Shown: piece by piece, positions 35,052-44,941 of the stretch
Position numbering within the stretch: position 1 is the stretch's first letter
Layout: each line of letters opens with the position of its first letter
NCBI RefSeq assembly: GCF_900187225.1
Contig: NZ_LT906436.1
Location: forward strand, 620,001-684,000
DNA length: 64,000 nucleotides
Reading direction: 5' to 3'
Source: Listeria monocytogenes
GTDB lineage: Bacteria; Bacillota; Bacilli; Lactobacillales; Listeriaceae
The notes under the pieces: model-generated
What the model was told of the DNA's origin: nothing
Databases searched by the model: none
The model's input: the letters and a program-made list of their open reading frames with translations, nothing else
Position numbers and translations under genes: made by a program

Positions 35052-36320
35052 TTGAAATTACCAATAAAAAAAGCAGTAGAAGCACTTTTGAAATTACAAA
35101 CAACAGGGGATAGCGCTACACTTATCGGCGTTGGACCAATGTCTCGCAATCTTTTACAAGCAAGTTTCGAATTAGCGAAGGAAGATGATTATCCGCTTAT
35201 GTTTATCGCTAGTCGTAATCAAGTAGATGCAGACGAACTTGGTGGCGGATATGTTAATGGCTGGAACCAATTTAGTTTCATTGATGCAATTAAAGAAGTT
35301 GCTAAAGAAGTGGATTTTGATGGGCTATATTATGTTTGTCGCGATCACGGGGGACCTTGGCAACGGGATCAAGAGAGAAATGATCACTTACCAACAGAAA
35401 AGGCGATGGAGTTAGGAAAAAAATCTTATATAGCGGATATTGAAGCTGGCTTTGACTTATTAATGATTGACCCAACCAAAGACCCTTTTGAAGTAGGAAA
35501 AGTTATTCCACTGGAAACTGTACTGGAAAGAACGGTTGATTTAATTGCATTTTGTGAGGAGGAACGAAAAAAACGTGGGCTGCCAGAAGTCGGTTATGAA
35601 GTTGGAACGGAAGAAACAAACGGCGGGCTAACTTCAACAGAAACGTATGAAAAGTTCATTACGCAATTAAAAGTGGAATTAGAAAAACGCGATTTACCAT
35701 TACCGACTTTCATCGTTGGGCAAACAGGGACATTAACTCGTAAAACCGAGCAAGTAGGTCACTTTAATTTCAAAAACGCCTATGATTTAGCGCAAATGGC
35801 AAAAAAATATGGTGTCGGTTTGAAAGAGCATAATGGCGATTATCTTGATGATGTAACGCTTTTAGAACATATTCCATCAGAAATAACAGCAACCAATGTA
35901 GCACCACAATACGGAACAGAAGAGACTCGCGCGTACTTGAAACTAGTTGAGTTAGAGCAAAAATTAGTAGAGAATGGTTTAATCAAAACTCCTTCTAACG
36001 CACGGGAAGTTTTACTCATTCAATCGATTAAAAGTGAACGCTGGCGCAAATGGATGTTAGATGGTCAAAAAGATATCACTATCAATGAAATCATGCAAGA
36101 TGATGATTTATCACTTGAAATCCTAGATATAGCAGGTCATTACACATTCAATGATGCAATGGTTAAGAAAGAAATCAACACATTATATGCCAATTTAGCT
36201 GCGAATAATATTGATGGAAAACGCTTTGTTATTGATCACATCAAACGCCCTATCCGCAATTACTCCGAATGTTACAATTTAAAAGGAGCCACAACTCGAA
36301 TTAAACAATTAGCTAAATAA
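35052..36320 (+). CDS. GatZ/KbaZ-family protein (tagatose-bisphosphate aldolase non-catalytic subunit or tagatose-6-phosphate epimerase)
   Basis: A 422-residue protein of the GatZ/KbaZ superfamily. Marks: LIGVGPMSRNLLQASFELAK, FIASRNQVD, YVCRDHGGPWQRDQERND and the C-terminal HYTFNDAMVKKEINTLYANL. In enterobacteria this is the non-catalytic partner of the class II aldolases GatY/KbaY, but none of those is in this window. Some homologues act alone as D-tagatose 6-phosphate 4-epimerases. Start is TTG 35052 with TAGGAGG 8 bases upstream. It terminates the PTS operon, so its substrate is probably the phosphosugar imported by these EII proteins. Confidence 0.85.
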   Translation: MKLPIKKAVEALLKLQTTGDSATLIGVGPMSRNLLQASFELAKEDDYPLMFIASRNQVDADELGGGYVNGWNQFSFIDAIKEVAKEVDFDGLYYVCRDHGGPWQRDQERNDHLPTEKAMELGKKSYIADIEAGFDLLMIDPTKDPFEVGKVIPLETVLERTVDLIAFCEEERKKRGLPEVGYEVGTEETNGGLTSTETYEKFITQLKVELEKRDLPLPTFIVGQTGTLTRKTEQVGHFNFKNAYDLAQMAKKYGVGLKEHNGDYLDDVTLLEHIPSEITATNVAPQYGTEETRAYLKLVELEQKLVENGLIKTPSNAREVLLIQSIKSERWRKWMLDGQKDITINEIMQDDDLSLEILDIAGHYTFNDAMVKKEINTLYANLAANNIDGKRFVIDHIKRPIRNYSECYNLKGATTRIKQLAK

Positions 36321-36324
36321 TATA

Positions 36325-36353
36325 GAGAGTCTAAGCGTTTTGCTTAGACTCTT
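36325..36353 (+). terminator. Terminator of the PTS operon
   Basis: GAGTCTAAGC (36327-36336) pairs with GCTTAGACTC (36342-36351), followed by a T-rich stretch. Confidence 0.85.
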
Positions 36354-36409
36354 CCTACTTTTTCGATTTAATGGTAGAGTAAAAGGAGTGAATTTTGCAG
36401 GAGGAAATG

Positions 36410-37114
36410 ATGATTAATTTAATTTTTGATATTGATGATACAGTTTATGACCAACTAAAACCATTTGAAAACGCATTTAAAACTGTTTTTGGAAAAGCAG
36501 ACCACCTGAAAATCGAAAATTTATATATTAAAAGTCGATTTTATAGTGATGAAGTTTATCACCGCGTTGTCCGAGGAGAAATGCCGAAAGCAGAAATGCA
36601 CGTTTATCGGATTACGCAGGCACTAAGCGATTTTGATTACCAAATTACGAAAAAAGAAGCAGAAACATTTCAACACGCCTACGAACAAAACCAACGTAAA
36701 ATTGAACTTTCACCGGGGATTAAAGAAATTCTCGCATGGGCTAAAAAGAACGAAATGACGATGGGGATTATTACAAACGGACCAAAAGAACATCAACAAC
36801 ATAAAATAAATGATTTACAAATCAATGATTGGATTCCAGCCGAGCACACTTTTATTTCTGGTAAAGTCGGTATCGAAAAACCAGACAAGAAAATATTTAA
36901 GCTAGTAGAAGAACAAATAGGTATTAACAGCGCGGAAACATATTATATTGGTGATTCTTTTGAAAATGATGTAATTGGTTCAAAAAGCGCGGGATGGAAA
37001 TCTATTTGGTTGAATAGACGAGGACATTTGAGACCAACAGAGGCAGCATTTCAGCCAGATTATTGTGTTGAAAATGAGCAACAATTATTCGCAATTTTAC
37101 AGGAGATATTTTAA
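36410..37114 (+). CDS. HAD-superfamily hydrolase (pyrimidine nucleotidase YjjG-like)
   Basis: A 234-residue HAD phosphatase: motif I FDIDDTVYD with nucleophile Asp, motif II IITNGP, a cap domain of about 80 residues, motif III KVGIEKPDKKIF, and motif IV YYIGDSFENDVIGSKSAGWK. The cap and the KxxIEKPD pattern resemble YjjG/YfnB-type phosphatases. CAGGAGG supports ATG 36410; a TTG at 36395 would precede the ribosome site. It may act on a phosphosugar or nucleotide, but it is separated from the PTS operon by a terminator. Confidence 0.85.
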   Translation: MINLIFDIDDTVYDQLKPFENAFKTVFGKADHLKIENLYIKSRFYSDEVYHRVVRGEMPKAEMHVYRITQALSDFDYQITKKEAETFQHAYEQNQRKIELSPGIKEILAWAKKNEMTMGIITNGPKEHQQHKINDLQINDWIPAEHTFISGKVGIEKPDKKIFKLVEEQIGINSAETYYIGDSFENDVIGSKSAGWKSIWLNRRGHLRPTEAAFQPDYCVENEQQLFAILQEIF

Positions 37115-37147
37115 GACCTTTTTCCATTTTGGGAAAAGGTTTTTTAG
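37113..37147 (+). terminator. Terminator of the HAD gene
   Basis: ACCTTTTTCC pairs with GGGAAAAGGT, followed by T residues. Confidence 0.85.
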
Positions 37148-37154
37148 TTATGAA

Positions 37155-37185
37155 TTGACACTTTTGACTATAAGAGATATTATAG
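37155..37185 (+). promoter_or_regulatory. Sigma-A promoter with overlapping palindrome for the Rrf2 operon
   Basis: TTGACA (37155-37160) and TATTAT (37178-37183) are 17 bp apart. CTATAAgagataTTATAG (37168-37185) is a perfect 6-bp-arm palindrome overlapping the -10. It is a likely autoregulatory site for the Rrf2 protein encoded next. Confidence 0.6.
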
Positions 37186-37218
37186 AGTGGTTAAGTCTTT
37201 AATTAAGAAGGTGAAAAT

Positions 37219-37635
37219 ATGAAATTTTCCAAAGCAACCAATTATGCGCTACATACGATGGTTTATTTAGCTAATTTGTCACCAGAAAAGTCTGTCGGTG
37301 TGAAAGAACTTGCGACCAAGCAAAATGTGTCGCCAACTTATCTATCTAAAGTTTTGACGATGCTAGTAAAAGCTAGTTTCATTGAGTCAGTAACGGGCGT
37401 CAATGGTGGGTATAAGTTAGCGGAACCAGCGAGTAGTATTAGTTTTCTTGATGTCATTCAAGCGATTGAAGGGAAGGGCGCCTTTTTCCATTGTGACCCT
37501 AAAAACCACAGCGAAAGCCAGCCGCACTGCTTGATTGGCGAAGTGATGAATAAGGCAGAGCAACAAATGGAAGATTATTTAAGCAAACAAACAGTAGGTA
37601 GTATTGTCGTAGAAATTGAAAAACATCAACATTAA
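37219..37635 (+). CDS. Rrf2-family transcriptional regulator
   Basis: A 138-residue Rrf2 protein: MKFSKATNYALHTMVYLANL, HTH in VGVKELATKQNVSPTYLSKV, wing GVNGGYKLAEPASSI, and a C-terminal loop with FHCDPKNHSESQPHCLIG. Two Cys residues are present in the region where NsrR/IscR carry three Fe-S ligands, so cluster binding is doubtful. GAAGGTG precedes the ATG. The methyltransferase gene begins 13 bp downstream and is surely in the same operon. The signal is unknown. Confidence 0.88.
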   Translation: MKFSKATNYALHTMVYLANLSPEKSVGVKELATKQNVSPTYLSKVLTMLVKASFIESVTGVNGGYKLAEPASSISFLDVIQAIEGKGAFFHCDPKNHSESQPHCLIGEVMNKAEQQMEDYLSKQTVGSIVVEIEKHQH

Positions 37636-37648
37636 AGGAGTGCTAAAA

Positions 37649-38242
37649 ATGAAACATCATCATAATCATCACGGGGAAGCTGGATTTAAACGGAAAGTAG
37701 ATTATTTAGATCGGCCAGAGCGGAGTGAAGTGCTGTCGCCAGAGGATTTTTTGCAGGCAATGCCAATCGGAAAAACAGCAAGTATTTTAGATTTAGGAGC
37801 GGGAACAGGATTTTTAACAATTCCAGCTGCAAAATTGGTTGATAATACAGTTTTTGCATTAGATTTAGATGCGAAAATGTTGGAATTAATTGAGTCGAAA
37901 GCGAAGGAAGCGGGTTTAGCTAATGTAGAAACGTTAGAAGCCAGCATGGATGATATTCCACTTGAGGCAAATTCCGTGGATGTTGTGCTCGCATCGCTCG
38001 TGTTACATGAAGCAGATTCGCTCGCGGATGTTCTGCGTGAAGTGAGTAGAGTTGTGAAAACTGGCGGCTACTTTGCTAGTTTGGAGTTTGATACGAAAGG
38101 GACTGATTTGAAAGGTCCGCCAATGGAAATTCAGATTTCTGCGGAGAAATTGAAGGAAGAACTTGCGGGATTTGGGTTTGAAGTGGTGAAAAATTGGCAG
38201 TTGGACGAGGGAATGTATGTGAGTATTGCGGTGAAGAAGTAA
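37649..38242 (+). CDS. Class I SAM-dependent methyltransferase
   Basis: A 197-residue methyltransferase. The N-terminus MKHHHNHHGEAGFKRK is His-rich. Motif I is ILDLGAGTGFLTIPAA, motif II LDLDAKMLEL, and ASLVLHEADSLADVL lies near motif IV. It belongs to the Methyltransf_11/25 group together with Rrf2-linked methyltransferases of Firmicutes. AAAGGAG supports ATG 37649 over a TTG at 37616. Linkage to Rrf2 suggests a stress or metal-related role (the His-rich head could bind metal), but no substrate can be assigned. Confidence 0.87.
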   Translation: MKHHHNHHGEAGFKRKVDYLDRPERSEVLSPEDFLQAMPIGKTASILDLGAGTGFLTIPAAKLVDNTVFALDLDAKMLELIESKAKEAGLANVETLEASMDDIPLEANSVDVVLASLVLHEADSLADVLREVSRVVKTGGYFASLEFDTKGTDLKGPPMEIQISAEKLKEELAGFGFEVVKNWQLDEGMYVSIAVKK

Positions 38243-38248
38243 CAGCAA

Positions 38249-38303
38249 AAAGGTTCACGTCTAAAAATAGCAATCAAAGCTATTTTTAAGCGTGAACCTT
38301 TTT
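38249..38303. terminator. Long bidirectional terminator between methyltransferase and tRNA-Ser
   Basis: AGGTTCACG (from 38251) through CTAAAAATAGC pairs with GCTATTTTTAAG and CGTGAACCT (to 38299). A-run and T-run flank the hairpin, serving both directions. Confidence 0.88.
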
Positions 38304-38310
38304 ATTTCTA

Positions 38311-38400
38311 CGGAGAAACGGGGATTCGAACCCCGGCGCGGCATACACCACCTAACAGATTTCGAGTCTGTCCCCTTCAGCCGGACTTGGGTATTTCTCC
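38311..38400 (-). tRNA. tRNA-Ser (anticodon CGA)
   Basis: The minus strand folds as a 90-nt class II tRNA. Acceptor stem GGAGAAA (5' at 38400) pairs with TTTCTCC, discriminator G at 38311. The anticodon stem ACAGA/TCTGT encloses loop CTCGAAA, giving anticodon CGA (reads UCG). A long variable arm and the T-arm GGTTCGAATCC follow. CCA is not encoded. Its 5' part (38374-38397) is duplicated exactly at 41171-41194, marking it as an integration site. Confidence 0.97.
38374..38397. repeat. Attachment-site-like direct repeat, tRNA copy
   Basis: A 24-bp segment inside the tRNA-Ser 5' part, starting CCTTCAGCCGG and ending GGGTATTTC, recurs identically and in the same orientation at 41171-41194. The two copies bracket 2.8 kb of AT-rich accessory DNA with an integrase remnant. 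Confidence 0.8.
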
Positions 38401-38466
38401 ATGTTGATATCCAATGTTTCGAGGATGTTTGAATTTATTTGACTATCAAATCAATTTCAACAGATT

Positions 38467-39126
38467 TTATTTTAGCATAAAATTAGGAAAAAGAGAAGCA
38501 GTGGAATCTTTCTTTTTCTGCGTGACATGGGTATAAATATTAAACATTATTTGTATATCGGTGTGCCCTAATCGTTCTTGTTTTTTAAGTGATGTATTTG
38601 CTTCAAACTGTAGAGAATCCGTGAGTGTGGCGGAAATCCGTGACAAGTTATTTTTTCAGAGTCACTACGATATTTAAAACAGTTATCTAACCATGCGTAT
38701 ATTGAACTAGGAAAATAATAATTTTCTTCATTATTGAATAAGATTTGAACTTCATCCGATCTCAAAATAGGATGATTCTCATGTTGATAGTTTTTCCATT
38801 TCTTAAAAGCATCGATTGTAGAATAATCTATACTAATATATCGCTTAACAGCTTTTGTTTAAGTTGTGTTTACTAAAATGTGAGCATATTTCACCGTGTG
38901 ACAAAGTTTTGTTGACATATAAGCATTTATTATTTAAATCTACATCCTTCCACGTGAATGCTAAGGCTTCGTATTTTCTTGAGTTAATGAAAGCTAAATG
39001 ATTGAAAAAGTATACTTGGAATGTTGGTATGGCAAAAACGATTGGTATTACACAGCAAACTACTTCTTGAAATGAACGAAAACTATTTAAGTGAAAATTA
39101 TTACATATAAAATTGATGAGAGTCAA
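38467..39126 (-). pseudogene. Decayed tyrosine recombinase (phage-type integrase)
   Basis: Fragments in different frames on the minus strand together rebuild an integrase C-terminal domain. In order: KYEALAFTWKDVDLNNK near 38930-38990, then TKAVKRYISID and DAFKKWKNYQ around 38770-38850, YAWLDNCFKY and TCHGF near 38620-38690, and finally RLGHTDIQIMFNIYTHVTQ at 38515-38580. The box II His and the catalytic Tyr (IYTH) can be seen, but the HGFRHTH-like segment is shifted (HGFPPHSR). A stop or frameshift separates the first two blocks. The N-terminal half is missing or unrecognisable. The gene ends near 38467, next to tRNA-Ser, the usual place for an integrase. It is surely inactive. Confidence 0.85.
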
Positions 39127-39484
39127 TAATCTTAAAATTTGATGAATAATTATACCGATTTATTCATTTGATAGTTATTGATTATGATAAATAATTAAAT
39201 AAACAAGGAATTTTTATAAGGTAAATAACGCATATTTTGAATAAATTTGAATTTTTTGTGACGACTAGAAACAGGGATGTATAAATTGTGAATAGTTACT
39301 CATTCTGAATATTATTTCGTGAACAAAAAACATAATGGTACACAAAATGTGTAAGAATGAATCTAAATAAGACGCATTTTTGACCGTTCACGACAAGAAT
39401 CGGACATTTCATTACATTTTTGGTTATACATAGCCTTTTCATGCTAATATTTTTTTGTTACTAAAATAAAAGGAGATGGACATA
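39127..39484. other. AT-rich spacer inside the element
   Basis: About 360 bp with no credible gene. It is very AT-rich and lies between the integrase remnant and the protease gene. A loose promoter-like pair, TTGGTT (39420-39425) and TAATAT (39445-39450), precedes the protease ribosome site. No known operator was recognised. Confidence 0.5.
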
Positions 39485-39739
39485 TTGAAAAAAATTGCAG
39501 CTATTTTTATTTTTAGTTTAGCAGTTTTGCTAATACCTTTAAGCGGCAAAGCAACTGTTGAAAAAAGTTTGGATTTAAGCGGAACAACATGTGTCACGAA
39601 TGAGGAGCAACTTGAAATACAAGATTTTGTTGACTCATCTAAAGAAGCTAGAGAGAAGTTTGTTGAGGAGTATAATGAGGCACATCCTGAGGATCAGGTG
39701 GAAAATACGGAGCCAATAATTAATCCTATAGAAAAATAG
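39485..39739 (+). CDS. Signal peptide and propeptide portion of a V8-like protease, ended by an in-frame amber codon
   Basis: AAGGAG at 39470-39475 is correctly spaced (9 bases) from TTG 39485; the ATG at 39476 overlaps the site and is not used. The 84 codons encode a signal peptide (MKKIAAIFIFSLAVLLIPLS, then GKA) and a charged propeptide-like segment ending NPIEK. A TAG at 39737-39739 stops translation. The same frame continues at once into the protease domain (39740 onward, APRLLKKVVGADNR), so this is the prepro part of a single ancestral gene. The peptide alone would be a secreted fragment with no known activity. Confidence 0.75.
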   Translation: MKKIAAIFIFSLAVLLIPLSGKATVEKSLDLSGTTCVTNEEQLEIQDFVDSSKEAREKFVEEYNEAHPEDQVENTEPIINPIEK

Positions 39740-39751
39740 GCACCTAGACTT

Positions 39752-40390
39752 TTGAAAAAAGTGGTTGGAGCAGACAATAGAGTAAAAGCAAATGTAAATA
39801 ATTCTCCATATAAACAAATAGGCTATATGGAAATGTCATTTAAGAAAGGCAATAAAATGGTTTGGTATGTTGGGACAGGAACAATTATCGGAAGCAATAA
39901 AGTCTTGACTGCAGGACACAATTTGTATGATAAGAGTACTAGATCGTGGGCAAATGGAGTTATTTTTCAGCCTAAAATGAATAATTGGGTATCCCCAACA
40001 TATGTTACTAGTTCTAAATTACATGTACCTGTAAATTGGTCGTCAAAAGGAGATAGCAATTATGACATAGGTGTAGTTACTTTATCTAAATCGGTTAGTA
40101 GTTATGGTTCTTTAAAATACAGAGTGCCAACGGCTAACACTACTTTATTTTCAACTATATCTGGATATCCAGGGCAGAGTCCTAAAGCTGGCTCACAATG
40201 GTATGGAAATGGTAATGCACTTATTACCAACCAAAAAATTTCTTACTCCATAGATACAACAGGGGGACAAAGTGGTTCTCCGATAATTAACGATGGATCA
40301 ATTATTGGTGTTCATACATTAGGGAGTTCAGCAAATTCAGGAGTTAGAATAACTCCTGCTTTAAAATCTTTTATTGATGGAGCAAAATAA
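39752..40390 (+). CDS. V8-like glutamyl endopeptidase, mature domain
   Basis: A 212-residue S1B-family serine protease domain starting near the maturation point VVGADNR. The triad is present: His56 in VLTAGHN, Asp105 in NYDIGVV, Ser174 in GGQSGSP. His188 in IIGVHTLG matches the residue that confers Glu specificity in V8/BL-GSE proteases. It lacks its own signal peptide: that is upstream of the TAG at 39737. TTG 39752 is only a nominal start with a poor site. Function therefore depends on readthrough or is lost. The stop overlaps the next start (TAATG). AT-rich, in the tRNA-flanked element. Confidence 0.8.
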   Translation: MKKVVGADNRVKANVNNSPYKQIGYMEMSFKKGNKMVWYVGTGTIIGSNKVLTAGHNLYDKSTRSWANGVIFQPKMNNWVSPTYVTSSKLHVPVNWSSKGDSNYDIGVVTLSKSVSSYGSLKYRVPTANTTLFSTISGYPGQSPKAGSQWYGNGNALITNQKISYSIDTTGGQSGSPIINDGSIIGVHTLGSSANSGVRITPALKSFIDGAK

Positions 40391-40749
40391 TGAAAAAAAT
40401 TATCAGCTTAATACTGTTATTATTAATTTTAACGGCTTGTTCAAATGATCCCCAAAAAGAGTCTAGTGTCGAAGCTAACGGGATAGTAGAAAGTGTCGAT
40501 GGTTACTCAATAGTAGTTAATAGCTTTAAAGAAAATTCAAAAAAAGTTACCGCGGATAAAGGTGAGAAAATTTATTTTGATATAGAAGATAAATATTATA
40601 ATGAGGAAGGCAAGAAAATAAAACTCTCCGAAATTAAAAGAAATGATAAAGTACTTATTGAGTTATCAGACGATTATAAAATACAAGAAACTTATCCAGG
40701 GAAAATAGACTCAATGGATGTAATAAAGATTATTAAATTGAATAGTTAA
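40390..40749 (+). CDS. Small lipoprotein with OB-like DUF3221-type domain
   Basis: A 119-residue lipoprotein. Signal MKKIISLILLLLILTAC with Cys17 as lipid site, then a mature part of about 100 residues with EANGIVESVDGYSIVVNS and KLSEIKRNDKVLIEL, a beta-barrel pattern like DUF3221/YobA proteins. The ATG overlaps the protease stop by one base, so the two genes are one transcription unit. A link with protease folding, inhibition or immunity is conceivable but unsupported by motifs. Confidence 0.75.
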   Translation: MKKIISLILLLLILTACSNDPQKESSVEANGIVESVDGYSIVVNSFKENSKKVTADKGEKIYFDIEDKYYNEEGKKIKLSEIKRNDKVLIELSDDYKIQETYPGKIDSMDVIKIIKLNS

Positions 40750-40832
40750 ATTTATATTAAGCAAATGATAATATAATAAAAAATAAGTGTGTTACATTAA
40801 CCTGTTTTGGTGAAGTAATATGCTTGTTTTTT

Positions 40833-40868
40833 AATTCCTTTTATTCTTGATTCAAGGAATTTTTGTTC
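40833..40868 (+). terminator. Terminator after the protease-lipoprotein pair
   Basis: AATTCCTT (40833-40840) pairs with AAGGAATT (40854-40861), followed by a T-rich tail. Confidence 0.6.
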
Positions 40869-41170
40869 GTTTTTTAGTGATAGGAGAAAAAATTTATGAT
40901 TTATTAGATGCTTTCAAAAGCAATTGGGCAATAGAAATACTTTGTTTAAAGAACGATTACCATATGTGATACAAGTATGTATTTCCTGTGCATTTGGATC
41001 ATGAAAGAAACATGGTTCAATTACAGCGATTTGACGAACGTATAATTGACTTTAATTATAGAAAAGTTTGTTTTCTGCGATGTTATGTTGTAAAATCCTA
41101 TAGCTTTAAATAGCCATTTCAAAGGCTTGTAAAAATTTATAGAAACCGACAAAAGAAAAACTTTTTACCT

Positions 41171-41194
41171 CCTTCAGCCGGACTTGGGTATTTC
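41171..41194. repeat. Attachment-site-like direct repeat, distal copy
   Basis: This is the identical 24-bp copy of the tRNA-Ser 5' part. The rest of a tRNA does not follow on either side, so it is not a second tRNA gene. It marks the probable right end of the inserted element. Confidence 0.8.
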
Positions 41195-41280
41195 CCCACT
41201 ATGACATAGAATGCTGACAAGAAGTATTGTATAATTGTAATAACGAAAATATCAGCGTTTTTATAAAAGGAGCGGTCTGG

Positions 41281-41814
41281 ATGGAAAGAAAATTGATTCA
41301 GGAAATTAATTTACTAGAAAATAAAAAGTTGGTTATGAATTTAAATATTGTGGCGATTGCTATTGTACTCATATTAACTGTTTTAGGAATTGTCTTTTCA
41401 GGTGGTTTTGCAATTACGAATGGTTTTATGGGGATTATTTGGATGTTTGGTGGTTATGCAGTAGCTATTGTTCTTCATGAAGCCGTACACGGGATTTTCT
41501 TTAAAGCATTTCGTCCAGAAGCAAAAGTGAAGTTTGGTTTTAAAAATGGGATGGCTTATGCGGGAAGCCCGGGAGCATTTTATACGAGAGCACAATTCTT
41601 TATTATATCGATTGCGCCATTTATTGTTCTTACGGGTTTATTTATTTTTCTACGCTTTCTCGGGGTGAATGAAGCGGTTCTATATTTGATTTTTGCGCTA
41701 CATACGTCTGGTTGTGTCGGGGATTTCTATTACTGTATTCTCTTGATTAATCAGCCGGCTGGAATCGTTGTGGAGGATACGGATAAAGGCATTAATTTTT
41801 ATTCAGAAGGTTAA
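41281..41814 (+). CDS. DUF3267 putative membrane zinc metalloprotease
   Basis: A 177-residue protein with about four helices. The motif HEAVHGIFFKAF is an HExxH zinc site inside the second hydrophobic region, which is the hallmark of DUF3267 (membrane peptidase-like). C-terminal helices follow (LHTSGCVGDFYYCILL), ending in an acidic tail. AAGGAG is 8 bases from ATG 41281; an upstream ATG at 41227 would include sequence without a site. It is the first core gene after the element. A natural substrate is not known. Confidence 0.85.
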   Translation: MERKLIQEINLLENKKLVMNLNIVAIAIVLILTVLGIVFSGGFAITNGFMGIIWMFGGYAVAIVLHEAVHGIFFKAFRPEAKVKFGFKNGMAYAGSPGAFYTRAQFFIISIAPFIVLTGLFIFLRFLGVNEAVLYLIFALHTSGCVGDFYYCILLINQPAGIVVEDTDKGINFYSEG

Positions 41815-41877
41815 GCTTGGTAACGATTACAACAAAGTGTTAGAATAAGGATATACTTTTAGAAAGAGGTGCTTGGT

Positions 41878-42795
41878 TTGAAACGAATAACAATTGGAAA
41901 TAGCGCTTTAACAGCTTCAGAAATTTCGCTAGGATGTATGAGAATGGCGGATCTTAGTAAAGAGGATGCAAACAAAGTAATTAATACAGCACTTGAAAAT
42001 GGTATTGATTTTTTTGATCACGCGGATATTTATGGCGGCGGTAAATCAGAGGAAGTCTTTGCTGATGCGATTGATATGAATGCAACAATTCGTGAAAAAA
42101 TGATTCTTCAATCAAAATGCGGAATTCGTCAAGGATTCTTTGATTTTTCAAAAGAGCACATTATTGCTTCTGTGGAAGGTAGCTTGAAACGCCTGAAAAC
42201 AGATTATTTAGATACACTTTTACTTCATCGTCCGGATACACTTTTCGAACCAGAAGAAGTAGCTGCGGCTTTCACAGAACTGGAAAAAAGTGGAAAAGTA
42301 CGTCATTTCGGCGTAAGCAATCAAAACCCAGGTCAAATTGAACTACTGAAAAAATACGTAGACCAAGAATTAATCGCCAACCAACTGCAATTTAGTATTA
42401 TGCATACGGGCATGATTGATACTGGTTTTAATGTGAATATGACAATTGATCCTTCGCTTGACCGTGATGGCGGCATTTTGGAGTATAGTCGTTTAAACAA
42501 CATGACTATCCAAGCGTGGTCCCCGTTCCAATATGGTTTCTTTGAAGGAGTTTTCTTAGATAATGACAAATTCCCTGAATTAAACAAAACAATCGACAAA
42601 ATCGCTGCTGATAAAGGTGTAACCAATTCAGCAATCGCCGTTGCGTGGATTCAGCGTCACCCAGCAAGCTTCCAAACAGTGGTTGGTACAATGAATCCAG
42701 GAAGAATTGCTGATATTGCAAAAGCTTCTGACGTAACACTTAGTCGCGAAGAATGGTACGAAATTTACCGTGCGGCTGGAAACCAATTACCTTAA
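41878..42795 (+). CDS. Aldo/keto reductase
   Basis: A 305-residue AKR TIM barrel. Catalytic Asp-Tyr-Lys-His pattern: DHADIYGGGKSEE (Tyr), LQSKCG (Lys), DTLLLHRPD (His), and the NADPH-binding IQAWSPF and HPASFQTVVGTMN near the end. It belongs to the YdhF/AKR11-like group that reduces aldehydes and ketones; the substrate is unknown. Start is TTG 41878, 8-9 bases after AAAGAGG; a GTG at 41869 overlaps that site. A strong terminator follows. Confidence 0.88.
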   Translation: MKRITIGNSALTASEISLGCMRMADLSKEDANKVINTALENGIDFFDHADIYGGGKSEEVFADAIDMNATIREKMILQSKCGIRQGFFDFSKEHIIASVEGSLKRLKTDYLDTLLLHRPDTLFEPEEVAAAFTELEKSGKVRHFGVSNQNPGQIELLKKYVDQELIANQLQFSIMHTGMIDTGFNVNMTIDPSLDRDGGILEYSRLNNMTIQAWSPFQYGFFEGVFLDNDKFPELNKTIDKIAADKGVTNSAIAVAWIQRHPASFQTVVGTMNPGRIADIAKASDVTLSREEWYEIYRAAGNQLP

Positions 42796-42804
42796 TGAAA
42801 ACAG

Positions 42805-42836
42805 ACACTTGAGCATTTTGCTCAAGTGTTTTTTTG
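42805..42836 (+). terminator. Terminator of the aldo/keto reductase gene
   Basis: ACACTTGAGC pairs with GCTCAAGTGT around ATTTT, followed by a T-run. Confidence 0.92.
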
Positions 42837-42893
42837 TGTATTAGACTGATAGTGAATTTCATTCTCAATTAGAATATAATTTTATCAATTAGT

Positions 42894-42922
42894 TTGATAT
42901 GCCATTAGAAAAGTGCTATAAT
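42894..42922 (+). promoter_or_regulatory. Sigma-A promoter upstream of the heavy-metal ATPase gene
   Basis: TTGATA (42894-42899) and TATAAT (42917-42922) are spaced by 17 bp. Transcription would start near 42929, about 130 bp before the coding region, and meets a terminator-like hairpin at 42977. Confidence 0.7.
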
Positions 42923-42928
42923 GACAAG

Positions 42929-43017
42929 TGAGTTAAGGATGTATATCTTTATAGTTATTTATAATAATTATTGTTTAATCTGTTTTTCGCGGTTGCGAAA
43001 GCAGATTTTTGTGTTTT
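42929..43017 (+). ncRNA. Candidate small RNA (about 88 nt) upstream of frvA
   Basis: The promoter at 42894-42922 is followed after some 50 bp by a hairpin, AATCTGtTTTTCGC with GCGAAAgCAGATT (42977-43007), then TTTTTGTGTTTTTT. A discrete RNA of about 85-90 nt is expected. No reading frame with a ribosome site lies within. The position between the aldo/keto reductase gene and frvA agrees with my memory of a Listeria sRNA mapped there (Rli32), but strand and ends cannot be confirmed. Confidence 0.6.
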
Positions 43018-43026
43018 TTAGGGTAA

Positions 43027-43041
43027 TGGGAATCATTATCA
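43027..43041. promoter_or_regulatory. Fur box at the frvA start
   Basis: TGGGAATCATTATCA matches the 7-1-7 Fur consensus at 13 of 15 positions. It is directly upstream of the frvA ribosome site (GGAGAGG at 43045). Fur control of FrvA is established knowledge in L. monocytogenes. Confidence 0.75.
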
Positions 43042-43060
43042 TTTGGAGAGGATGAGCATA

Positions 43061-44941
43061 ATGAAAGATTGGATGAAGCAGAATTGGCAATTTATTACGA
43101 CAGGTATTAGCGGAATTTTGATTGTGATTGGCTGTTTGGTCGGTAGTGATGTTGGTGACTTTTGGACAGCGGTTATTTTCCTAAGTGCTTTTGTTATTGG
43201 TGGTTTTGAGCAAGCTAAAGAAGGTATTCAAGCAACTATTAAAACAAAGAAGTTAAACGTGGAGCTTTTGATGATTTTAGCGGCTACCGGTGCATCGATT
43301 ATTGGTTATTGGTTTGAAGGGGCCATACTTATTTTTATTTTCTCGGTTAGTGGGGCATTAGAAACGTATACGACGAATAAAAGTAAGCGCGAAATCACGA
43401 AATTAATGGCATTTCAACCAGAACGAGCTTTTCGTTTACTTTCTAATGGGGATTTAGAGGAAGTTGCTGCAAAAGAGCTACAACTGGATGATATGGTCTT
43501 CGTTCGGCCGGGAGAAAGTGTTCCAATCGATGGAGTGATTGTTCGCGGCTCAACCACATTAAATGAAGCAGCCATTAATGGGGAATCTGTTCCAGCAACG
43601 AAAACTGTTGGTGCGGATGTGTTTGGTGGAACGGTCAATGTAAGTAGCGCTATTACGGTTAAAGTAACACAAACATTTGAAAATACGATTTTCAGTAAAA
43701 TTATTCGTTTAGTAGAAACTGCTCAAAGCGAACCGTCTAAAACCGCGCGTTTTATTGAACGATTTGAGGATGTTTATGTAAAAGCAGTTCTATTATTTGT
43801 GTTAGTAATGATGTTCTTACCTCATTTTGCACTAGGGTGGTCGTGGAATGAAACCTTTTATCGCGCGATGGTTTTATTAACAGTTGCATCACCTTGTGCG
43901 CTAGTAGCTTCTGTAACGCCTGCGACTTTAGCGGCAATTTCTAACGGTGCGCGTCACGGTATTTTATTTAAAGGCGGCGTACACTTGGAAAATTTGCGCG
44001 GTGTAAAAGCCATTGCATTTGATAAAACGGGAACTTTGACAAATGGAACGCCCGCACTAACCGATCGACTATTCGCCGAAAATGTTGATAAACAGTTAGT
44101 AATCAATGTGGTTGGAGCGATGGAACGACAATCTTTACATCCGTTAGCTGCGGCAATAACACAAGACTTAGAACCGGAAATCACCGAAAAGTTAACGGAA
44201 ATAGAAGTGACGGATGTACCTGGTTGGGGAGTTCAAGCGATTTATCGAGAAGGGAATTGGCAAGTTGGAAAGGCTGGGTTTGTTGGGAAAGAAGCAGCGG
44301 CAGCATTTTCAAATGGCGCATTTGAACGACTTGCAAGTGAAGGGAAAACGATTGTTTATGTAGCTAAAGACGGCGTAATTCAAGCCATGTTTGCTCTTAA
44401 AGATACATGTCGTCCTGAAGCTATTCGTACGATCAAAGCCCTTCAAGCAAAAGGGATTAAGACTATTATGGTGACGGGCGATAATGAGCAGACAGGTGCG
44501 GCAATTCAAGCCGAACTAGGGATGGACTATGTCGTTTCCGGTTGTTTACCTGAGAAAAAAGTGGATGTGTTAAGAGAATTGTCGGTTACTTATGGCAGTG
44601 TGGCAATGGTTGGCGATGGAATTAATGATGCCCCGGCACTTGCACATGCGGCTGTTGGAATTGCAATGGGCGAAGGTACAGATATCGCAATGGAAACAGC
44701 CGATGTTGTCTTAATGAAAAATGATTTAGAAAAAATCCCCTACGCTTACACGCTTTCGGAACGACTTCACTGGATCACCTGGCAAAATATTTGTTTTGCG
44801 ATTGCTGTAATTCTTGTTTTAATAACGGCTAATGTTTTCCAACTAATCAATTTACCATTCGGGGTTGTGGGACATGAGGGAAGTACTATTTTAGTTATTT
44901 TAAATGGTCTTAGATTGCTTAGATCTAACCGGAAAAAGTGA
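43061..44941 (+). CDS. frvA: P1B-type heavy-metal transporting ATPase FrvA
   Basis: A 626-residue P1B ATPase without an N-terminal metal-binding domain. Landmarks: NGESVPATK (actuator TGE-like loop), the SPC metal site in VASPCALVASVTP, phosphorylation motif DKTGTLTNG, HP in MERQSLHPLAAA, TGDN and GDGINDAPALA. The SPC motif and GEST-type tail suit P1B-4-like pumps; published work on FrvA shows Fe(II)/haem-linked export and virulence effects. GGAGAGG supports ATG 43061. The Fur box and a candidate sRNA lie upstream. Confidence 0.92.
   Translation: MKDWMKQNWQFITTGISGILIVIGCLVGSDVGDFWTAVIFLSAFVIGGFEQAKEGIQATIKTKKLNVELLMILAATGASIIGYWFEGAILIFIFSVSGALETYTTNKSKREITKLMAFQPERAFRLLSNGDLEEVAAKELQLDDMVFVRPGESVPIDGVIVRGSTTLNEAAINGESVPATKTVGADVFGGTVNVSSAITVKVTQTFENTIFSKIIRLVETAQSEPSKTARFIERFEDVYVKAVLLFVLVMMFLPHFALGWSWNETFYRAMVLLTVASPCALVASVTPATLAAISNGARHGILFKGGVHLENLRGVKAIAFDKTGTLTNGTPALTDRLFAENVDKQLVINVVGAMERQSLHPLAAAITQDLEPEITEKLTEIEVTDVPGWGVQAIYREGNWQVGKAGFVGKEAAAAFSNGAFERLASEGKTIVYVAKDGVIQAMFALKDTCRPEAIRTIKALQAKGIKTIMVTGDNEQTGAAIQAELGMDYVVSGCLPEKKVDVLRELSVTYGSVAMVGDGINDAPALAHAAVGIAMGEGTDIAMETADVVLMKNDLEKIPYAYTLSERLHWITWQNICFAIAVILVLITANVFQLINLPFGVVGHEGSTILVILNGLRLLRSNRKK

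What the first reader, a model, noticed from the sequence alone, without database searches (positions are those of the whole stretch)
38374..41194. Small decayed integrative element at tRNA-Ser(CGA) carrying a protease-lipoprotein cargo
The sequence shows an exact 24-bp direct repeat of the tRNA-Ser 5' part on each side of 2.8 kb of AT-rich DNA. Inside are a broken tyrosine integrase next to the tRNA, a V8-like protease gene, a small lipoprotein gene and an unidentified remnant. Tyrosine integrases use tRNA genes as attachment sites, though mostly the 3' half; here the 5' part is duplicated and the tRNA promoter must lie inside the element. Flanking genes are core Listeria. This makes it a strain-variable, probably fixed mini-island.
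Basis: partly seen in the sequence, partly recalled or inferred. Interest (0 to 1): 0.72.

Follow-up and report, generated by a model that had tools for sequence, protein, structure and literature searches.

The report
Prophage stump keeping quorum-linked protease genes
A phage that once inserted beside a serine tRNA gene in Listeria has lost nearly all of its genes but kept a small pair of secreted-protein genes behind a copy of the bacterium's own cell-to-cell signalling promoter, which suggests that decaying phages can leave the host with genes wired to its communication system.

Summary
A 24-bp exact repeat of the 5' part of tRNA-Ser(CGA) flanks 2.8 kb of AT-rich DNA. Of 25 Listeria-genus genomes, 6 are occupied at this site, 11 are empty (tRNA joined straight to the DUF3267 gene), and 8 hold a single repeat beside other neighbours. 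It is not a small element by origin but a prophage with its middle deleted: the C-terminal half of a tyrosine integrase is fused to the last ~23 codons of a phage endolysin. Then come the phage's accessory-gene slot, a decayed 77-aa phage gene and the right att copy. Another species has an intact integrase and endolysin between att copies ~36 kb apart at the same site. The cargo is a V8/glutamyl-endopeptidase-like protease (stop after codon 87 here; open elsewhere) overlapping by one base with a lipoprotein gene. It stands behind a copy of the agr P2 promoter with one substitution in 41 bp. The same box precedes agrB and lmo0477, both strongly Agr-dependent in print. An agr-like promoter on the phage metzincin-lipoprotein pair mtz-tim was published in 2021; this is an unrelated serine-protease pair in the same slot. 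Agr control of this copy is inferred, not measured.

The parts
38310..38401 (-). tRNA-Ser(CGA); its 5' part is the attachment site
   Evidence: ARAGORN; Rfam RF00005
38374..38397 (.). attL: left copy of the 24-bp repeat, within the tRNA 5' part
   Evidence: occupied and empty sites compared
38476..39003 (-). tyrosine integrase remnant, about codons 200-379 of a 381-aa relative, broken across frames
   Evidence: intact relative at L042:8499-9644
39004..39075 (+). last ~23 codons and stop of a phage endolysin (...WYYTANYFLK); marks the right edge of the internal deletion
   Evidence: tblastn to endolysins of A500, vB_LmoS_293, LP019 and G015, 70-74%; same junction in G018 and FDAARGOS_57
39387..39395 (+). 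box repeat 1 (TTCACGACA)
39408..39416 (+). box repeat 2 (TTCATTACA), 12 bp after repeat 1
39442..39450 (+). extended -10 (TG-N-TANNNT) at the spacing conserved in 70 non-redundant boxes
39476..40390 (+). V8/glutamyl-endopeptidase-like protease gene, broken by an in-frame stop after codon 87; the part after the stop holds the catalytic domain but no signal peptide
40390..40749 (+). lipoprotein gene, 119 aa, start overlaps the protease stop by 1 base; OB-type fold in the model
40901..41074 (+). remnant of the 77-aa phage gene that stands between accessory genes and attP
   Evidence: 66% over residues 15-72; 44 phage records; place in A500
41171..41194 (.). attR: right copy of the 24-bp repeat
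41227..41814 (+). DUF3267 gene, right flank
   Evidence: next to the tRNA in 11 empty sites

Best explanation
A temperate phage of the A500/PSA kind (shown by gene order and by homology of the endolysin tail and the att-side gene) integrated by a tyrosine integrase into the 5' side of tRNA-Ser(CGA). A deletion between the middle of the integrase and the end of the endolysin removed the rest of the phage (junction shown). It left both att copies and the accessory-gene slot that lies between endolysin and attP in these phages. That slot holds a two-gene unit, a secreted V8-like protease and a lipoprotein with an OB-type fold, behind a copy of the agr P2 promoter (sequence shown). The likely working: AgrA binds the two 9-bp repeats when the Agr peptide accumulates and switches the unit on (inferred from the same box at agrB and lmo0477). 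By analogy with the phage pair Mtz-Tim, protease and lipoprotein then act together outside the cell on the envelope or at phage release (inference). In this strain the protease gene is broken, so at most the lipoprotein can still be made.
For: Of 25 genus genomes, 11 empty, 8 with a single repeat and other neighbours, 6 occupied. Integrase-endolysin fusion with the same junction in three genomes. Intact integrase and endolysin between att copies ~36 kb apart at the same tRNA in G015. Published prophages upstream of tRNA Ser-CGA in L. monocytogenes 4423 and 3253 (PMC4412001, passages). Box: 7 copies in this genome, 18 of 25 genus genomes, 0 hits for the backward-read control in all 25. 70 non-redundant boxes share an extended -10 that lies outside the search pattern. 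The box stands before agrB in 23 of 25 genomes with 0-12 mismatches. Published qPCR primers for agrB and lmo0477 map just downstream of two boxes. lmo0477 falls 36-fold without agrD (PMC11297923, passages) and 21.4-fold without agrA (PMC3443086, passages). Purified AgrA binds P2 (PMC10269664, passages). LytTR sites are 9-bp repeats mostly 12 bp apart (PMC6193735, passages). 73 of 80 non-agrB downstream ORFs begin with a signal- or TM-like segment, against 31 (40 with internal starts) of 126 background ORFs. Protease catalytic part window vs G011 dN/dS 0.08, with dS about 1.2, near saturation.
Against: No expression or binding data for this copy. Boxes were collected by similarity, so conservation inside the pattern is partly by selection; the ORF picker favoured ATG starts with a ribosome-binding site near the box; boxes and genes come from related genomes and are not independent. 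G016 and G009 showed no agrB box within 14 mismatches. Only 9 of the 44 phage records with the 77-aa gene are among the 18 with the box, so the box is not a constant part of the phage slot. The main text of the agrA transcriptome paper names no gene of the lmo063x region (its supplements were not seen). The lipoprotein's dN/dS among close copies is 0.12-0.56 on few changes. tRNA transcription in the occupied state is not settled: promoter-like matches are at chance level.
Confidence: 0.8

Rival explanations
1. The segment was always a small integrative or mobilizable island carrying only an integrase and the cargo, and it merely shares genes with phages.
For: Small size; att copies and integrase are all such an element needs; other cargo sits in similarly short segments in G017 and G019.
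Against: An endolysin tail is fused to the integrase remnant; the 77-aa att-side phage gene is present; gene order equals the integrated ends of A500-type phages; att copies ~36 kb apart with integrase and endolysin use the same tRNA in G015.
Confidence: 0.07
2. The box is a conserved promoter piece carried along by recombination and is bound by another regulator or by none; the cargo is not under Agr control.
For: No measurement on this copy; similarity to A500 and to L002 extends 200-240 bp upstream of the box, so a whole block may have been copied.
Against: Across 70 boxes the two repeats, the stretch to the -35 and the extended -10 stay nearly fixed; the same box is the agrB promoter region in 23 of 25 genomes; box-linked lmo0477 is among the genes most lowered without agrA; a paper drew the same inference for phage mtz-tim promoters (PMC8235301).
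Confidence: 0.12
3. The repeat is a stray duplication of tRNA sequence (for example by unequal recombination), not an attachment site.
For: tRNA fragments can be duplicated without integration.
Against: Unoccupied sites have one copy; G000, G017 and G019 have two with integrase remains beside the tRNA copy, and G015 has two with an intact integrase. In G018 the right copy has decayed.
Confidence: 0.01

Closest known systems
mtz-tim phage accessory pair of Listeria (metzincin protease plus TIMP-like lipoprotein; PMC8235301: abstract, passages and sections 4.1 and 5 read)
   Same: Secreted protease gene followed at once by a lipoprotein gene with an LTAC lipobox; slot downstream of holin-lysin and upstream of a conserved gene pair; promoter sequence shared with agrBDCA; found in prophages and as a domesticated pair.
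   Different: Here the protease is a V8-like serine protease, not a zinc metzincin; sequence relation of the lipoprotein to Tim was not tested, and that TIMPs are OB folds is recalled; the remnant is at tRNA-Ser(CGA), not near tig/clpX; this strain's protease is broken.
Listeria phage A500 (DQ003637) and relatives HS5, vB_Lmo_3274, vB_Lmo_W16
   Same: In A500: endolysin, agr-type box, secreted gene (gp27), 77-aa gene, attP, integrase on the opposite strand. The box is in all four.
   Different: Different integrase (42% over 33 residues); cargo is another secreted protein with no Pfam family at E 0.01.
Prophages upstream of tRNA Ser-CGA in L. monocytogenes 4423 and 3253 (PMC4412001, passages)
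   Same: Same tRNA and side as described there.
   Different: Described as prophages; their sequence was not compared here.
agr P2 promoter of Listeria (EMSA in PMC10269664, passages)
   Same: One substitution over the 41-bp box between this copy and this genome's agrB box, same repeat spacing.
   Different: Drives protease-lipoprotein cargo, not agrBDCA; AgrA binding of this copy untested.

Membership tests
Remnant of an A500/PSA-type Listeria prophage | att duplication flanking the insert and empty sites elsewhere | tested here: met
Remnant of an A500/PSA-type Listeria prophage | phage genes of both ends in prophage order (int toward attL; endolysin tail, accessory genes, 77-aa gene, attR) | tested here: met
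Remnant of an A500/PSA-type Listeria prophage | structural, replication and packaging genes | tested here: not met
   none among the six pieces scanned, and 2.8 kb leaves no room; so it is a stump, not a functional prophage
agr P2-type (AgrA/LytTR) promoter | two 9-bp direct repeats with a 12-bp spacer upstream of -35 and -10 | tested here: met
   architecture per PMC6193735
agr P2-type (AgrA/LytTR) promoter | bound by AgrA and AgrA-dependent transcription | not testable with these tools
   in print for P2 (binding) and for lmo0477 (transcription); not for this copy
V8 / glutamyl endopeptidase family (S1B) | chymotrypsin-like fold with His-Asp-Ser triad | tested here: met
   Pfam Trypsin 1.7e-8, 1p3c E 3.2e-18; TAGH, DIGV and GQSGSP motifs read by eye, family motifs recalled
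V8 / glutamyl endopeptidase family (S1B) | intact secreted product | tested here: not met
   in-frame stop after codon 87; 301-aa open frames in G018 and FDAARGOS_57
mtz-tim pair | zinc metzincin protease (HEXXHXXGXXH/D) | tested here: not met
   serine protease instead
mtz-tim pair | protease-lipoprotein pair in the phage accessory slot behind an agr-like promoter | tested here: met
   description from PMC8235301
YobA/DUF3221 lipoproteins | Pfam DUF3221 match | tested here: not met
   not among the 13 families matched by 8 relatives at E 10; two relatives are named DUF3221 by a source
YobA/DUF3221 lipoproteins | OB-type fold like YobA | tested here: inconclusive
   YobA 4qy7 ranks first by Foldseek at E 0.022 with no match at E 0.001, and 9th by Z (6.8, rmsd 3.4, 75 aligned), tied with many OB folds
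Phage-inducible chromosomal island (PICI) or IME | intact integrase plus own regulators or mobilization genes | tested here: not met
   integrase broken; no regulator or relaxase among the six pieces scanned

The most novel reading that the evidence does not exclude
The secreted part of the Listeria Agr regulon is largely built and spread by temperate phages. Phages carry a slot (endolysin, agr-type promoter, exchangeable secreted cargo, 77-aa gene, attP). When prophages decay at attachment sites, the slot survives and becomes a host quorum-sensing gene. At least two unrelated protease families have independently been paired with a small lipoprotein in this slot.
Probability: 0.35. Interest if true: 0.75.

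Novelty: new variant of a known kind. Interest (0 to 1): 0.48.

Why it matters
It turns an AT-rich scrap into a readable record: the phage is gone but its quorum-linked cargo slot is kept. It extends a one-paragraph published remark on mtz-tim promoters to an unrelated protease-lipoprotein pair and to a box found at several sites in most of the 18 (of 25) Listeria genomes that have it. How Agr acquires strain-specific targets becomes directly testable with reporters and an agrA deletion in laboratory strains.

Tried and rejected
Rejected: a small integrative element by origin (endolysin tail); chance repeat (empty and occupied sites); PICI or IME (no such genes among the pieces scanned). A tRNA promoter inside the element: a conserved stretch follows the integrase stop, but the promoter scan of 38200-41300 found 18 sites against 16.5 expected in shuffles, so this stays open. 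Rfam at gathering thresholds found only the tRNA in 36000-44000. The single-sequence fold of the lipoprotein was poor (pLDDT 38.6); with 8 sequences it was better (mean 79.8), but fold matches are generic OB folds and TIMP structures were not looked for by name. The viral-contig scan with the intact integrase found 3 loci, 93% identical; among phage records the best row listed was 52.5% over 99%, and 2 records of 2,161 fell in the 60-80% band but were not listed. My first reading that phage remains lie between two boxes beside tsf did not hold up (see noticed items). Paper searches whose listings showed no report of this element or of the box sequence: (listings, with passages of some papers). 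One search listed PMC8235301, which holds the agr-promoter remark. The library lacks most subscription papers, and no supplements were seen.
Full report
What is there. The window lies in a 2.86-Mb single-contig genome. The insert is identical over 2,769 bases to L. monocytogenes NCTC7974. tRNA-Ser(CGA) is at 38310-38401 on the minus strand, and the 24-bp exact repeat is at 38374-38397 and 41171-41194. Because the tRNA reads leftward, the repeat is its 5' part, and the DNA upstream of the tRNA is now the insert. GC inside is 0.25-0.35.

Empty and occupied sites. In 25 genus genomes (sites read), 11 have a single repeat with the DUF3267 frame starting 33-41 bp after it (G002, G003, G004, G005, G010, G012, G013, G016, G020, G022, G024; in G004 and G010 that protein is only 45-46% identical). 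Eight have a single repeat but no DUF3267 match at E 1e-10 in the stretch held (G001, G006, G007, G008, G009, G014, G021, G023). Six are occupied (G000, G011, G015, G017, G018, G019); in G011 the two ends lie on different contigs, so occupation is inferred from integrase on one side and att remains on the other. Exact core lengths are 24 bp here, 28 in G017, 31 in G015, 24 in G019 and 21 in FDAARGOS_57 and the OR846727 contig; in G018 the right copy has decayed. The longest core runs from the tRNA 5' end to just before the anticodon stem. That prophages sit upstream of tRNA Ser-CGA in L. monocytogenes is in print (PMC4412001, passages).

A phage with its middle gone. The minus-strand remnant matches codons 185-379 of the 381-aa integrase of G015 in pieces; the first of those codons overlap the endolysin tail and are probably a chance extension, since the matches begin at codon 202 in G018 and 198 in FDAARGOS_57. 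Directly after it, on the plus strand, 39004-39072 encodes the last ~23 residues of a phage endolysin, 70-74% identical to four endolysins. The same junction is present in G018 and FDAARGOS_57, so it is inherited. G017 and G019 keep less integrase, show no endolysin match and carry other cargo. At 40901-41074 lies a piece of a 77-aa phage gene (66%) that occurs in 44 phage records, 42 of them named Listeria. In A500 the order is endolysin, accessory genes, 77-aa gene, attP, integrase, which on integration gives the two ends seen here. G015 has an intact integrase, an endolysin about 31 kb beyond it and a second att copy about 36 kb from the first at the same tRNA; the DNA between was fetched but annotated only in part. 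A second stump with the same cargo sits elsewhere in G011 next to a different integrase remnant.

The promoter. A search of the locus against its own genome hit other places around 39385-39446. One lies upstream of agrB (Pfam AgrB 3.4e-39). With up to 3 mismatches over 36 bp the box occurs 7 times in this genome and in 18 of 25 genus genomes; the pattern read backwards has 0 hits in all 25. Across 70 non-redundant instances (98 before collapse at 90%; genome, phage and viral loci together) the frame is TTCAYGACA-N12-TTCATTACA, then TTGGTT (read by me as -35), then TG-N-TANNNT at positions 56-64. The -10 lies outside the search pattern and is therefore independent support. The box stands before agrB in 23 of 25 genomes with 0-12 mismatches; in G016 and G009 none was found within 14. 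Published primers for agrB and lmo0477 match the genes next to two boxes, three of the four without mismatch and one with 1 (PMC11297923). Those genes fall about 38- and 36-fold without agrD (passages). lmo0477, lmo0478 and lmo0479 fall 21.4-, 12.3- and 4.9-fold without agrA (PMC3443086, passages); that paper's main text names no lmo063x gene. AgrA binds P2 in vitro (PMC10269664, passages). LytTR regulators use 9-bp repeats mostly 12 bp apart just upstream of -35 (PMC6193735, passages). Of 92 boxes with a downstream ORF (93 distinct boxes), 12 precede agrB. Of the other 80, 73 encode a signal- or TM-like start, against 31 of 126 background ORFs of 100 aa or more (40 if internal starts are allowed); the 7 misses are ORFs of 35-85 aa. 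These counts include related genomes, and the ORF picker favoured ATG with a ribosome-binding site, so they are a rough contrast.

Phage side. 18 of 50,697 phage records hold the box, all Listeria. The named isolates are A500 (two records), HS5, vB_Lmo_3274 and vB_Lmo_W16. The other 13 are 'LM 4-11-1' and 'LM 4-14-1' contigs, at least one of which looks like bacterial chromosome (L062). Only 9 of the 44 records with the 77-aa gene are among these 18, so the box is a minority feature of the phage slot. Among 10 IMG/VR stretches, 7 show box, then cargo, then 77-aa gene (L094, L095, L097, L098, L100, L101, L102). Of 111 loci with a box (some overlap), 35 show a hit to the phage right-end proteins; many of the rest hold only ~1.5 kb of flank.

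Prior art. PMC8235301 (abstract, passages, sections 4.1 and 5 read) states that the phage mtz-tim pairs lie frequently downstream of holin-lysin and that their promoter regions contain a long sequence identical to that upstream of agrBDCA, so that they are most likely Agr-regulated. It reports that Mtz cleaves the lipoprotein Tim and that the pair sensitizes cells to lysis. The present pair is a different protease class in the same slot. I therefore call it a new variant of a known kind. Agr control and joint action of protease and lipoprotein are inferences here; insertion, deletion junction, cargo identity and box are shown.

Noticed in passing
window 38243-38309; same place in L049, L051, L052, L053, L054, L055, L039: The 3' side of tRNA-Ser(CGA) is a second variable site: 0.99-4.84 kb lies between the methyltransferase gene and the tRNA in 7 of 13 loci examined, with unrelated ORFs; one of 510 aa in G020 looks like an LXG-type toxin gene from recall.
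   Followed up: partly
L044:4639-6803: G015 has a second small element after the prophage's right att copy: an integrase remnant, a lipoprotein-like ORF and a repressor-like ORF.
   Followed up: partly
L002, L130, L125:1541-3524, L099:763-3378: A box lies just downstream of tsf in L002 and L130. In L125 a piece of the 77-aa phage gene lies between two boxes; in L099 pieces of it and of the next phage gene lie upstream of two boxes. tsf is not in the L125 and L099 stretches, so whether these are one place is not shown. That tsf is an attB of phage B054 is recalled.
   Followed up: partly
L045:10261-12400 (G011:C19): The same protease, lipoprotein and 77-aa remnant at another chromosomal site next to a different integrase remnant, with the protease also interrupted.
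   Followed up: yes
records NZ_LR134399.1, NZ_CP030101.1, OR846727.1: Two 'plasmid' records (394 kb and 2.9 Mb) and one 'Listeria phage LM 4-11-1' record carry this locus with its core flanking genes, so they are probably chromosome under wrong labels.
   Followed up: no
L040:3955-4584, L098:7658-8563, L010:449-1117, L011:341-949: These four secreted cargo proteins behind phage or remnant boxes have no Pfam match at E 0.01; A500 gp27 gave only a far sub-threshold NCBIfam hit (21 bits, cut-off 428) to a staphylococcal superantigen-like model over its N-terminal 80 residues.
   Followed up: no
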